Assembly (NCBI GenBank): GCA_003556605.1
Contig: PWQX01000066.1
Span: 1 to 47,770, forward strand
Origin: Spirochaetaceae bacterium
Lineage (GTDB): Bacteria > Spirochaetota > Spirochaetia > DSM-27196 > SLAA01
Direction of reading: 5' to 3'
Length of the DNA stretch: 47,770 nt
Part shown: positions 3,218 to 33,301 of the stretch, piece after piece
Position numbering within the stretch: the first letter of the stretch is position 1
Layout of the letters: each line of letters begins with the position of its first letter
Notes under the pieces: generated by a model
The model's input: the letters and a program-made list of their open reading frames with translations, nothing else
What the model was told of the DNA's origin: nothing
Database searches by the model: none
Program-made: the position numbers and the translations under genes

Positions 3218-3331
3218 TTACTTCTGCCTCTGCTTGTGCTTCGGATTCGAGCACACAATTCGGATCACACCATGACGGCGGACTACCTTGCAGCGCTCAC
3301 ATATGCGCTTCACACTCGCTCTCACTTTCAT
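3218..3331 (-). CDS. rpmJ: 50S ribosomal protein L36, zinc-binding form
   Basis: I translated this 37-residue protein directly. It begins [19 protein letters not shown]. Cys11, Cys14, Cys27 and His32 form the zinc site of the C+ form of L36. An AGAGGGG Shine-Dalgarno lies 8 bases before the ATG. It sits between secY (17 bases) and rpsM (12 bases), the usual order in spirochaetes and many other bacteria when infA, adk and map are missing from this interval. Confidence 0.96.
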
Positions 3332-5140: not shown

Positions 5141-5323
5141 CTACACCTCCTCGGTACGCACTAGGTGTGATACCGCCCGCACCATGCCGCGAATGGCATC
5201 ACCGGCCTCCAGTTCAACCGTCTGATTCATGCGCCGCAGTCCAAGCGCCCGCACGGTACGGCGGTGCTGAGGCTTGCACCCTATCGGGCTCTTCACAAGC
5301 GTTATTCGCAGCCTCTGTGCCAT
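5141..5323 (-). CDS. rpmD: 50S ribosomal protein L30
   Basis: L30 is a small peripheral protein of the large subunit. I use the ATG at 5323, which gives a 60-residue protein starting [15 protein letters not shown], the family's normal start. An upstream in-frame GTG at 5338 would add five residues but lies inside the end of rpsE. The motif [17 protein letters not shown] is diagnostic. The gene follows the rpsE stop by 5 bases, so translation is probably coupled. Confidence 0.95.
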
Positions 5324-7172: not shown

Positions 7173-7358
7173 CTACCAGCTCGATTTCGTTACGCCGGGA
7201 ATCAGCCCCTCACTAGCGAGCTTCCTAAAACACACCCTGCACATTTCAAACTTGCGCATATAGCCCCGCGGCCTTCCGCAAATGCGACAGCGATGAATCT
7301 TTCTGGTAGAGTACTTGGGCTTCTTCTGCGCCTTCACTATCATCGATTTTTTCGCCAT
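7173..7358 (-). CDS. rpsN: 30S ribosomal protein S14, zinc-binding type Z
   Basis: This is the short 61-residue zinc form of S14. Cys24, Cys27, Cys40 and Cys43 (CRIC and CRVC pairs) make the zinc ribbon. The C-terminus [18 protein letters not shown] matches the family. Position between rplE and rpsH is standard. Confidence 0.98.
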
Positions 7359-27382: not shown

Positions 27383-27565
27383 CTACTTCACCTTCGTTTC
27401 TTTATGCAACGTATGCTTGCGCTCGAAGCGACAATACTTCATCAGCTCAAGTTTACCCTGAATATTACGCTTATTCTTCTTTGTCGTATAGTTGCGGCGT
27501 TTACAGCTCTCGCATTGCAACGCGATCAACTCAACTGTTTTGCCTTTCGCCTTGTTTCCCGCCAC
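27383..27565 (-). CDS. rpmG: 50S ribosomal protein L33, partial zinc site
   Basis: L33 is a small E-site-region protein. The 60-residue product contains [17 protein letters not shown] and [16 protein letters not shown]. The first zinc pair (Cys18, Cys21) is present, but the second has only Cys45; position 48, Cys in the zinc form, is Glu. The site is therefore probably degenerate. The start codon is GTG at 27565 with GGAG six bases before it. It lies between the two tRNA genes. Confidence 0.95.
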
Positions 27566-31661: not shown

Positions 31662-31898
31662 CCCGTGTCCGACACGGTCTCGGCACCGGCGACGTGCTCT
31701 GACCGCGGCGTTCGTGAACCCCGCGGCATTTGCGGCCGCTCGCTCCCGGGGTCTATACGCTTTTACAGCCGTCCTCGCGGCTGCCTGTGCTACCGCACGG
31801 TGCTTCTATTACTGAGCGGTGGGGGGCGATCGGTGTTTCGCAGCGAGCCGCCGTGACGCCGGTGTGCCGACAAGCCTCCGCACTGCCGCAGGCGCGGG
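31662..31898. other. Convergent spacer between the UDPGP-like gene and dcd
   Basis: I see no convincing gene in these 237 bases. Two bases after the stop of the UDPGP-like gene, CCGTGT-CCG-ACACGG (31663-31677) forms a perfect short hairpin that may aid termination, though no T run follows. The remaining sequence is GC-rich with short direct and inverted repeats only. Confidence 0.5.
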
Positions 31899-32423
31899 TC
31901 ACCCGGTGGGGAACTCCTTGTACAACAAGCTATGCTGAATTCCAGTGTTGTTCTGATACTTACCGGAACGATAGCTCTCGTACTCACCATGAATGGTATG
32001 GTAGAAAATCTGGCAGATCTGTATCCCGGCGTAGATTCGAATCGGCTGCACGCAGAATATCTCGAGTGTCCAGTACCCACGGAACCCGACATCCCCGAAA
32101 CCCGCCGTTATATGCACAAAGAGACCGAGCCGGCCGATAGACGACCTCCCCTCGAGCATCGGCACCAACCCATTTGTCGCGGTGTATTCCATCGTCCGGC
32201 CGAGATACAAGCGCTGCGGCTCGAGCACCAGACCCTCGCGGGGAATCTGAACTACCGACGAAGTGTTCTCCACACGCATGTCGAGCTCGTGTGAGTCGTA
32301 TACGCGTAGCTCATCATGCAGGCGGAGATTGTAGCTGTTGGGGTTCAACTGCTCCGGAGCAAACGGATCTATTACAATCTCGTTACCGAGAGCCGACTGA
32401 ATCTGCTTCCCGGAAAGAATCAT
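31899..32423 (-). CDS. dcd: dCTP deaminase
   Basis: Deaminates dCTP to dUTP (or, in bifunctional members, to dUMP), feeding dTMP synthesis. The 174-residue protein has the family start MILSGKQIQSAL, NPNSYNLRL, the active-site segment EGRSSIGRLGLFVHITAGFG, WTLEIF with the catalytic Glu, and the C-terminal YQNNTGIQHSLLYKEF. Whether it is mono- or bifunctional cannot be told. The ATG has no Shine-Dalgarno: it lies four bases after the T run of a strong terminator belonging to the gene upstream. How it is transcribed and initiated is therefore unclear. Confidence 0.92.
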   Translation of the reverse strand: MILSGKQIQSALGNEIVIDPFAPEQLNPNSYNLRLHDELRVYDSHELDMRVENTSSVVQIPREGLVLEPQRLYLGRTMEYTATNGLVPMLEGRSSIGRLGLFVHITAGFGDVGFRGYWTLEIFCVQPIRIYAGIQICQIFYHTIHGEYESYRSGKYQNNTGIQHSLLYKEFPTG

Positions 32424-32426
32424 AGC

Positions 32427-32452
32427 AAAAAACGCGCCGACGAAGCGGCGCG
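32427..32452 (-). terminator. Strong intrinsic terminator after the 56-residue basic protein gene
   Basis: CGCGCCG, a CTTCGT loop and CGGCGCG followed by six T on the minus strand; a perfect seven-pair stem. It begins nine bases after the small gene's stop codon and ends four bases before the dcd ATG. Confidence 0.9.
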
Positions 32453-32460
32453 CCGTTACC

Positions 32461-32631
32461 TTACATCAAATCGCGAGGTTTGCGCGCCTGATTCCCGGTC
32501 TTCTCGCAAACCGCAAAATGGCGCATTCGACCGTTTTCAAAAACCGACTTCACGACGATCTTGCCGCCCCACTTGCTCACGATCTCTTTCGAGCCGTCGC
32601 GACGAGCGTTCTTGGATACCTTTCCAGCCAT
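32461..32631 (-). CDS. Small basic protein of 56 residues, unknown function
   Basis: I translated this myself; it is below common ORF size limits. It begins MAGKVSKNARRDGSKEIVSK and ends KTGNQARKPRDLM, with about a quarter Lys and Arg, a central beta-like stretch (GGKIVVKSVFENGRMRHFAV) and one Cys. The unit is complete and tidy: a promoter with TTGACA, a strong AGGAGG seven bases from the ATG, and a perfect terminator just after the stop. That architecture implies high expression. Composition resembles small ribosomal or RNA-binding proteins, but I cannot place it in a named family. Confidence 0.85.
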   Translation of the reverse strand: MAGKVSKNARRDGSKEIVSKWGGKIVVKSVFENGRMRHFAVCEKTGNQARKPRDLM

Positions 32632-32652
32632 ATACGTTTCCTCCTATAAGCG

Positions 32653-32682
32653 AAGCTATTTATCACACACCGTTGCTGTCAA
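32653..32682 (-). promoter_or_regulatory. Promoter of the small basic protein gene
   Basis: Consensus TTGACA (32677-32682), an 18-base spacer and TAGCTT (32653-32658) on the minus strand. The -10 is weak, and a 17-base alternative is possible. It lies just downstream of the folB stop. Confidence 0.65.
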
Positions 32683-32757
32683 GCGGTTTCGCCGGCACCG
32701 TTCTGACGCGAGCCGCTACCGGCAGGGGCGTGTTATATCACGGGTCGCCGCACATAT

Positions 32758-33156
32758 TCAACCCGTACCGAGCCGGCCGTCTGACTGCACTCGCTCGAGC
32801 GAGACCGTCGTTTGTTCCACTCCACTGGGGATTTCTCGTTTGGAGATCGCGATACGCACCGTCCGGACCTCCGGATACTCAGCCAGTACCGCCTCGGCAC
32901 ATTCGGCGGCCGCACACTCCAGCAGCCTTCGCGGCCGTGCACCCATGACCGCGCGCAGCGTCTCTGCGATCGCGCCGTAGTCAACCGCATCGGAAAGCCG
33001 GTCGTTCCGCGCGGCAGCCGCGGCATCGTAGCGCACCACGCAGTCAAGTCGCAGTCGCTGCGGTACGGCGCGTTCGGAGTCAAATGCGCCGATACTGGCG
33101 GTTACCCGAAGCCCGCTGAGCGTTATTGTCGCATCGGTCCTGCCGGCGTCAGACAT
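32758..33156 (-). CDS. folB: Dihydroneopterin aldolase-like protein
   Basis: FolB cleaves dihydroneopterin in tetrahydrofolate synthesis. The 132-residue protein matches the family pattern: ITLSGLRVTASIGAFDSER with Glu28, SDAVDYGAIAETLR, LLECAAAECAEAVLAEYPEV with Glu80, and IAISKREIP with the catalytic-type Lys106. No other folate gene is adjacent. The ATG has AAGG immediately before it, too close for a normal site, and overlaps the end of a short open frame (33149-33277), so coupled translation is possible. The family also includes epimerase relatives. Confidence 0.82.
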   Translation of the reverse strand: MSDAGRTDATITLSGLRVTASIGAFDSERAVPQRLRLDCVVRYDAAAAARNDRLSDAVDYGAIAETLRAVMGARPRRLLECAAAECAEAVLAEYPEVRTVRIAISKREIPSGVEQTTVSLERVQSDGRLGTG

Positions 33157-33277
33157 CCTTAGATATTCCGGGTGACAAACACACCGCCTTCCGGGCTGAG
33201 TTCCCCGGTAGCAAACCCGGGAGCGGCGCCGGCGGTGACGTGAGCTGCGCGCACGACAAACCGGAATCGATATGCAT
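33149..33277 (-). other. Short open frame or gene remnant between proB and folB
   Basis: A 42-codon frame starts at an ATG (33277) with AAGGA eight bases upstream and ends at a TGA overlapping the folB start. Its product is Pro/Ser/Cys-rich and does not look like a folded protein. Another frame of the same bases, without a start codon and ending at a TAA just before folB, reads like a protein (VTAGAAPGFATGELSPEGGV). This suggests either a leader peptide coupled to folB or the frame-shifted remnant of a small gene. Functional assignment is not possible. Confidence 0.35.
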
Positions 33278-33301
33278 GCTTATCGTTCCTTCAATCATAC
33301 G

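What the first reader, a model, noticed from the sequence alone, without database searches (positions are those of the whole stretch)
32461..32682. Orphan 56-residue basic protein with a full high-expression cassette
A TTGACA promoter, a strong AGGAGG, a 56-codon frame rich in Lys and Arg and a perfect terminator form a self-contained unit. This is the signature of an abundant small protein. The sequence looks like a ribosome-associated or nucleoid protein, yet I cannot name a family. Such genes are easily missed by size cut-offs.
Basis: partly seen in the sequence, partly recalled or inferred. Interest (0 to 1): 0.55.

Follow-up and report, generated by a model that had tools for sequence, protein, structure and literature searches.

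The report
Small spirochaete ribosomal protein bL38
The unnamed 56-residue basic protein is bL38, a ribosomal protein of one class of spirochaetes, in a form that seems to have given up a zinc-binding site found in its relatives and that some bacteriophages also carry.

Summary
The gene is real (window 32461-32631, minus strand, 56 aa) and not an orphan. It is the homologue of Borrelia burgdorferi 50S protein bL38 (phmmer E 8.4e-17; model to chain 8fmw_Ai, TM 0.85), which sits beside the sarcin-ricin loop. Pfam and NCBIfam gave no match. A profile finds the family in 213 of 214 sampled genomes of the window's class and without a confident match in 178 genomes of other classes.

New here: (1) 126 of the 213 group with a four-cysteine form (CxCGG...CxxC) that looks like a zinc ribbon; the window's form, in 87, keeps one cysteine. 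(2) By E-value no genome holds both. Without the ligand columns the Cys-poor form is still one clade (100/99), yet RpoB+RpoC reject its bearers as a clade (p-AU 4e-5), so genes were swapped. (3) Eight viral contigs (six distinct proteins) encode the Cys-poor form, three of them inside tRNA arrays. (4) Tail residues SKN are invariant in 164 proteins but fall in the part poorly resolved in the Borrelia ribosome.

Zinc binding, incorporation in this organism, and transfer by phage are inferences.

The parts
32461..32631 (-). bL38 gene, 56 aa, Cys-poor form
   Evidence: phmmer to 8fmw_Ai E 8.4e-17; pN/pS 0.10-0.31 against 14 relatives
32605..32616 (-). codons 6-9, S-K-N-A tail; S, K and N invariant in 164 distinct proteins
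32575..32577 (-). codon 19 (Ser), first Cys position of the four-Cys form
32569..32571 (-). codon 21 (Trp), second Cys position of the four-Cys form
32506..32508 (-). codon 42 (Cys), the one cysteine kept in both forms
32497..32499 (-). codon 45 (Thr), fourth Cys position of the four-Cys form
32640..32645 (-). AGGAGG, Shine-Dalgarno sequence, 8 nt before the ATG
   Evidence: read
32677..32682 (-). TTGACA, -35-like hexamer without a good -10
   Evidence: scan found no full promoter; TTGAC also in L082-L084
32431..32454 (-). intrinsic-terminator-like stem-loop with T run
   Evidence: also after the stop in L082-L084
31899..32423 (-). dcd, dCTP deaminase, downstream neighbour
   Evidence: TIGR02274 115.5 bits, cut-off 92.8
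32758..33156 (-). folB, dihydroneopterin aldolase, upstream neighbour
   Evidence: TIGR00525 79.1 bits, cut-off 72.15

Best explanation
The gene encodes ribosomal protein bL38 of the large subunit, homologous to Borrelia BB_0162. By homology (sequence and fold tested here; the contacts are those reported for Borrelia) a beta-hairpin and a short C-terminal helix bind 23S rRNA helices H95/H97 beside uL6 and uL14, with basic residues R35, R37, R50, K51 and R53 at the reported RNA-contact positions. Inferred: the invariant SKN tail reaches toward the sarcin-ricin loop or the factors that bind it, so the protein tunes assembly or GTPase docking. The window's protein is the Cys-poor, presumably zinc-free form of a two-form family; the other form has a CxC...CxxC motif like a zinc ribbon. 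The forms have replaced one another across the class by gene displacement, and phages, which carry the Cys-poor form, are one plausible carrier. The confidence given is for the identity as bL38; the two-form part I put at about 0.8, phage as a carrier at about 0.35.
For: Homology: phmmer 8.4e-17 and profile 1e-21 to 8fmw_Ai; Foldseek rank 1 of 427, E 1.7e-5, TM 0.85 by target length; VIA Z 6.7 over 46 residues, next row 3.6. The Borrelia protein was located by cryo-EM and mass spectrometry (PMC10618245, passages and section 9); the five RNA-contact positions it lists are all basic in the window (numbering). Distribution: 213 of 214 genomes of the class, E at most 2e-12; no match better than E 0.0012 in 178 others. 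Purifying selection. Context: bS20 found near 62 of 91 four-Cys copies. Two forms: of 220 loci 101 CCCC, 115 SWCT/SWCS, 4 other. One clade for the Cys-poor form without the three ligand columns, 100/99; RpoB+RpoC reject its bearers as a clade, p-AU 4.3e-5; bS20 near 0 of 35 Cys-poor copies. Phage copies.
Against: No experiment on this organism. Zinc binding by the four-Cys form rests on the motif and weak fold matches: VIA Z at most 3.8, Foldseek best E 0.04 and that to bL38 itself, models with pLDDT 66-70. The swap could be ancient duplication with differential loss. Viral contigs are few (8, six distinct proteins), hosts are not shown, and the scatter of the phage rows is not beyond shuffled labels (54 of 500 as low). 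The bL38 trees rest on 52-53 columns and their bootstraps had not settled. The species tree is a quick one; it flags one long class branch (G246) and odd composition for G076 and G149.
Confidence: 0.95

Rival explanations
1. Same protein, other history: the two forms arose by one ancient duplication and each lineage later lost one copy; neither horizontal transfer nor phage is needed.
For: The forms exclude each other, the Cys-poor clade sits on a long stem of 0.78, and early presence of both forms is part of the account given for ribosomal protein S4 (PMC3087516, abstract).
Against: By E-value no genome of 213 keeps both forms, where differential loss would be expected to leave some. Phage copies exist and lie at three or more places within the Cys-poor clade.
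Confidence: 0.4
2. A nucleoid or other nucleic-acid-binding protein that is not part of the ribosome.
For: Small and basic, 14 Lys/Arg of 56; resemblance of the four-Cys form to zinc ribbons of non-ribosomal proteins (weak).
Against: Homology to a chain built into a 50S map and found by mass spectrometry; the fold search puts that chain first; many relatives lie by bS20.
Confidence: 0.02
3. A chance open reading frame.
For: It is short, and the + strand carries longer overlapping frames.
Against: pN/pS 0.10-0.31; found in 213 of 214 genomes of the class; ribosome-binding sites before the start are visible in the relatives listed.
Confidence: 0.005
4. The viral copies are mis-binned bacterial DNA, so that no phage carries bL38.
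For: L314 and L317 show no phage hallmark gene in what I scanned (L314: two proteins, one with only peptidase or endolysin-like matches; L317: none scanned).
Against: Major head protein on the same contigs in L313 and L316, tail tube and SbcD-like protein in L319, RNA ligase in L315; 18-26 tRNA genes around bL38 in L314, L315 and L317; three near-identical contigs for L318-L320.
Confidence: 0.05

Closest known systems
Borrelia burgdorferi ribosomal protein bL38 (BB_0162, UniProt O51184, PDB 8fmw chain Ai)
   Same: Homologous over the resolved residues (query 11-55); same Cys-poor type (SRWGG...C); the five reported RNA-contact positions are basic in both.
   Different: The window gene is followed by dcd; I did not compare this with the Borrelia neighbourhood. 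The passages of the paper that I saw mention neither a four-Cys form nor phage copies.
Flavobacterium johnsoniae bL38
   Same: According to PMC10618245 (section 9) it occupies a similar place in the 50S subunit.
   Different: The same text reports a 14 A displacement, a different internal structure and a failed translated search. Our profile matched no chain but 8fmw_Ai and a weak L28 at E up to 10; whether the Flavobacterium chain is in that library was not checked. Homology is open.
Zinc (C+) and zinc-free (C-) ribosomal protein pairs, for example uS4 and the mycobacterial AltRP operon
   Same: Cys ligands lost together; gene tree at odds with the species tree; zinc-free forms sometimes side by side (here bL38 and bL33). 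PMC3087516 and PMC5912738, abstracts.
   Different: Here the two forms were not found together in any genome of the class; regulation by zinc was not tested.
Phage-encoded ribosomal proteins (bS21, bL12, bL31, bL33 and others; PhiMa05)
   Same: A small ribosomal protein on contigs with phage genes (PMC6375957, abstract and passages; PMC13157829, abstract).
   Different: bL38 was not named in what I saw of these papers; the phage host here is unknown.

Membership tests
Spirochaete ribosomal protein bL38 (BB_0162 type) | Sequence homology to the cryo-EM chain | tested here: met
   phmmer E 8.4e-17; profile E 1e-21
Spirochaete ribosomal protein bL38 (BB_0162 type) | Fold of the cryo-EM chain | tested here: met
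   Foldseek E 1.7e-5, TM 0.85 by target length; VIA Z 6.7, rmsd 2.4, 46 aligned; model pLDDT 69.9
Spirochaete ribosomal protein bL38 (BB_0162 type) | Five basic RNA-contact residues (Borrelia K34, K36, R49, K50, R52) | tested here: met
   Window R35, R37, R50, K51, R53, numbering, list. In the whole family position 53 is Ser at weight 0.25
Spirochaete ribosomal protein bL38 (BB_0162 type) | Present in the assembled 50S subunit | not testable with these tools
   Shown for Borrelia only
Zinc-ribbon (C+) ribosomal protein | Four Cys ligands | tested here: not met
   The window protein keeps 1 of 4; the four-Cys state is in 101 of 220 loci
Zinc-free (C-) counterpart of a zinc-ribbon ribosomal protein | Homologue of a Cys-quartet protein with ligands lost | tested here: met
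Zinc-free (C-) counterpart of a zinc-ribbon ribosomal protein | The four-Cys form binds zinc | tested here: inconclusive
   Motif; fold neighbours include zinc ribbons but at Z up to 3.8
Zinc-free (C-) counterpart of a zinc-ribbon ribosomal protein | Induced by zinc shortage | not tested
   No regulator site was searched for
Flavobacterium bL38 | Common ancestry with that protein | tested here: inconclusive
   No profile match seen, not listed by VIA; its presence in the libraries was not checked

The most novel reading that the evidence does not exclude
bL38 is a two-form ribosomal protein in which a zinc-free version, spread at least partly by phages, has repeatedly replaced the zinc-ribbon version throughout one class of bacteria. 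Its invariant N-terminal tail is a mobile arm that meets translational GTPases at the sarcin-ricin loop, so phages that carry bL38 among their tRNA genes re-equip the host ribosome during infection.
Probability: 0.3. Interest if true: 0.78.

Novelty: new member of a known kind. Interest (0 to 1): 0.55.

Why it matters
It turns an unnamed small gene into a named ribosomal protein for a bacterial class that, by the Borrelia homologue, takes in the Lyme disease spirochaete. It explains why annotation can miss it: no Pfam or NCBIfam match. If the two-form reading holds, it is a clean natural experiment on how ribosomes give up zinc. It offers a possible marker gene for phages of spirochaetes whose hosts are unknown, and a testable prediction about a ribosomal arm near the GTPase centre.

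Tried and rejected
Tried without gain: Pfam and NCBIfam for the window protein (0 families). Scans of the 29 members of alignment A1 gave scattered zinc-finger and L31 matches for a minority of members (at most 3 and 6 of 29; best E 0.00044 and 0.00055), read as generic zinc-ribbon resemblance. A weak profile match to an L28 chain (E 0.69) was not followed. Rfam on 31800-33300: none. Plasmids with a four-Cys query and INPHARED phages with one phage query: no match. VIA lists show no Flavobacterium bL38; that proves nothing. Literature: of 24 papers listed for 'bL38' plus 'ribosom', by title only PMC10618245 concerns this protein; searches added none; a search for spirochete, phage, ribosomal protein and jumbo together found none. 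These searches cover the held library only.

Rejected: the first RpoB tree, because one row (G006) was a wrong-frame translation; rebuilt with RpoB+RpoC. There G331 was counted as Cys-poor (6 changes for that label); for the clade test it and G349 were put with the other side, because their changes (D-S-C-T, H-D-C-C) are separate events (5 changes). Nucleoid protein and chance frame: see the rivals.

Against my reading, or limits: 12 of 178 genomes of other classes gave weak profile hits (E 0.0012-0.086), taken as chance zinc ribbons and not examined; the single-sequence search gave 0 of 178 at E 0.001. G138 of the class has only E 0.098. Other phyla were not sampled: the Cys-poor pattern scan of the 84,980-species collection found 173 relatives, of which the best 80 were shown, all spirochaete records by title; the four-Cys form was not scanned there. 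Letters were read for 129 genomes, that is 35 of the 87 Cys-poor and 94 of the 126 others; the rest are assigned by E-value. The 220 loci hold repeats of some genomes, and named records overlap numbered genomes, so the two neighbour counts must not be added. Only 35 of 91 four-Cys copies had 1400 bases or more downstream, against 33 of 35 Cys-poor ones. The SKNA stretch was picked after the alignment was seen; G34, C42 and R50 are invariant too.

Full report
OBSERVATION. The frame, ribosome-binding site and terminator are present as described. The promoter is half there: TTGACA without a good -10, and 0 promoter-like sites by scan. In the three nearest relatives, L082-L084, TTGAC and a terminator-like stem are also present, and the sequence after it reads like the start of dcd. 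Selection is plain: against 14 relatives pN/pS is 0.10-0.31.

IDENTITY. Pfam and NCBIfam gave no match up to E 1. A search of solved structures up to E 10 gave a single hit, 8fmw_Ai, Borrelia 50S protein bL38, E 8.4e-17. An AlphaFold model built with alignment A1 of 29 sequences (pLDDT 69.9) found the same chain first among 427 Foldseek matches, the only one under E 0.001, with VIA Z 6.7 against 3.6 for the next row. The paper (PMC10618245; abstract, passages on bL38 and section 9 seen) describes a protein missed by annotation, found as density, assigned by mass spectrometry to bb0162, and contacting H95 with the sarcin-ricin loop, H97, uL6 and uL14; nine N-terminal residues are not well resolved. 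The five basic RNA-contact residues that it lists correspond to R35, R37, R50, K51 and R53 of the window protein.

DISTRIBUTION. In 392 genomes of the phylum the single sequence hit 207, all in the window's class, at E 0.001. A profile of the four-Cys form hit 213 of the 214 genomes of that class with E at most 2e-12, one (G138) only at 0.098, and 12 of the 178 others weakly at 0.0012-0.086. The window genome has one copy. Named relatives include Alkalispirochaeta, Sphaerochaeta and Bullifex.

TWO FORMS. Of 220 loci read, 101 have the quartet C-C-C-C, 115 have S-W-C-T or S-W-C-S, two D-S-C-T, one H-D-C-C and one H-C-C-C. The 140 loci from numbered genomes represent 129 genomes in 22 families; 80 more are named records that partly overlap them. 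The losses are close to all-or-none, as expected if three ligands lose their purpose together. In one search (Cys-poor query) 87 genomes score E 2.7e-17 or better and the other 120 hits 2.2e-11 or worse; (four-Cys profile) the first group scores 4.8e-18 or worse and the other 126 score 4.5e-24 or better. A genome with both forms would break one of these gaps, and none of 213 does. Two genomes show a second copy of their own form (G206 with two different four-Cys proteins; G347 with two loci). The fold model of the four-Cys form (pLDDT 66.4) matches bL38 itself first by Foldseek (E 0.04); by VIA the top rows are chain I of RNA polymerase II entries, which I recall as the zinc-ribbon subunit Rpb9, but only at Z up to 3.8. 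Zinc binding is an inference.

SWAP, NOT ONLY MUTATION. With the three changing ligand columns left out, the Cys-poor proteins still form one clade, 100/99 (66 rows, 53 columns; bootstrap not settled). On a quick tree of RpoB plus RpoC (30 genomes, 2556 columns) the 12 genomes with that form need five changes, and one clade is rejected (log-likelihood 107.9 lower, p-AU 4.3e-5). Gene context agrees: bS20 was found near the four-Cys gene in 62 of 91 copies (44 within 450 nt downstream on the same strand, 8 further on the same strand, 10 on the opposite strand) and near the Cys-poor gene in 0 of 35 numbered genomes and 0 of 80 named records. After the Cys-poor gene, within 450 nt, dcd was found in 7 of 35 and 22 of 80, and a bL33 without the zinc quartet in 2 of 35 and 6 of 80; flanks were shorter for many four-Cys copies. 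A separate loss is seen in G355, whose D-S-C-T protein lies 1.0 kb upstream of bS20 on the same strand; in G331, with the same protein, no bS20 was found within the fetched 10 kb. In G130 and G377 the neighbouring bL33 is the only bL33 found in the genome. The same kind of history is published for uS4 (PMC3087516, abstract), and an operon of zinc-free ribosomal proteins for mycobacteria (PMC5912738, abstract).

PHAGES. Pattern scans of 2.9 million viral contigs found bL38 on eight contigs of 21-306 kb, six distinct proteins, all Cys-poor. Phage genes on the same contigs: major head protein in L313 and L316, head-tail adaptor in L313, tail tube, helicase and SbcD-like protein in L319, RNA ligase in L315; the head protein of L316 has tblastn matches in 2497 phage records. 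In L314, L315 and L317, 26, 18 and 21 tRNA genes lie within the fetched 8.6-10.2 kb around bL38. For L314 and L317 the viral call rests on IMG/VR and the tRNA array: of two L314 proteins scanned one matched peptidases and endolysins and one nothing, and no L317 protein was scanned. L318-L320 lie on three contigs that are over 99.9% identical in the fetched part; L313 and L316 differ at 7/3/24 first/second/third codon positions, a sign of selection. In a tree the phage proteins fall at three or more places inside the Cys-poor clade (five in the best tree, not beyond shuffled labels); the L314 protein groups with family f10 (99/93). Viral ribosomal proteins are known (PMC6375957, abstract and passages; PMC13157829, abstract), including a proposed phage-to-cell transfer; bL38 is not named in what I saw of them, and neither is among the papers that one search lists for bL38.

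MECHANISM. Shown for Borrelia by others: bL38 binds at H95/H97. Inferred here: the tail S6-K7-N8, invariant in 164 distinct proteins (mean entropy 0.27 over residues 6-9 against 1.40 for 10-56), falls in the stretch that is poorly resolved in a hibernating ribosome (chain 8fmw_Ai starts at residue 10), and so may act with a partner absent from that state, such as a GTPase or an assembly factor. The Cys-poor form would give the same clamp without metal. Phages may carry it to keep or change translation in the infected cell.

VERDICT. The window gene is an ordinary member of a little-known ribosomal protein family. The interest lies in the family: its four-Cys form, the displacement pattern and the phage copies.

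Noticed in passing
window 27383-27565 (-): The bL33 gene beside secE/nusG keeps only 3 of the 4 zinc-site cysteines (CxxC...YCRFE). A second bL33-like frame without the quartet lies on another contig of the same assembly (G000:C231; L330 699-827), which may be contamination (estimate 4.38%).
   Followed up: partly
L306 and L309 (G130, G377); also L102, L107: A bL33 gene without the zinc quartet follows bL38 directly. In G130, G203, G293, G377 and G246 the only bL33 found is of that kind: a possible zinc-free module.
   Followed up: partly
window 5159-5311 (-): uL30 here lies in an open frame of only 70 aa, so it probably lacks the N-terminal helix reported for Borrelia uL30.
   Followed up: no
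L218 and L219 (G355, G331): Two genomes of family f7 have a bL38 with D, S, C, T at the ligand positions: a loss separate from that of the window's form.
   Followed up: yes
L183 and L189 (G206): One genome holds two different four-Cys bL38 genes.
   Followed up: no
L109: A MAG contig titled Borreliella garinii has the same length (61235) as the contig of G286, a genome of family f10, and carries a bL38 unlike those of the small-genome family f9: probably a misnamed record.
   Followed up: no
window 3218-3331 (-) and 7173-7358 (-): bL36 and uS14 of this genome keep their zinc-type cysteines, unlike bL38 (read).
   Followed up: no
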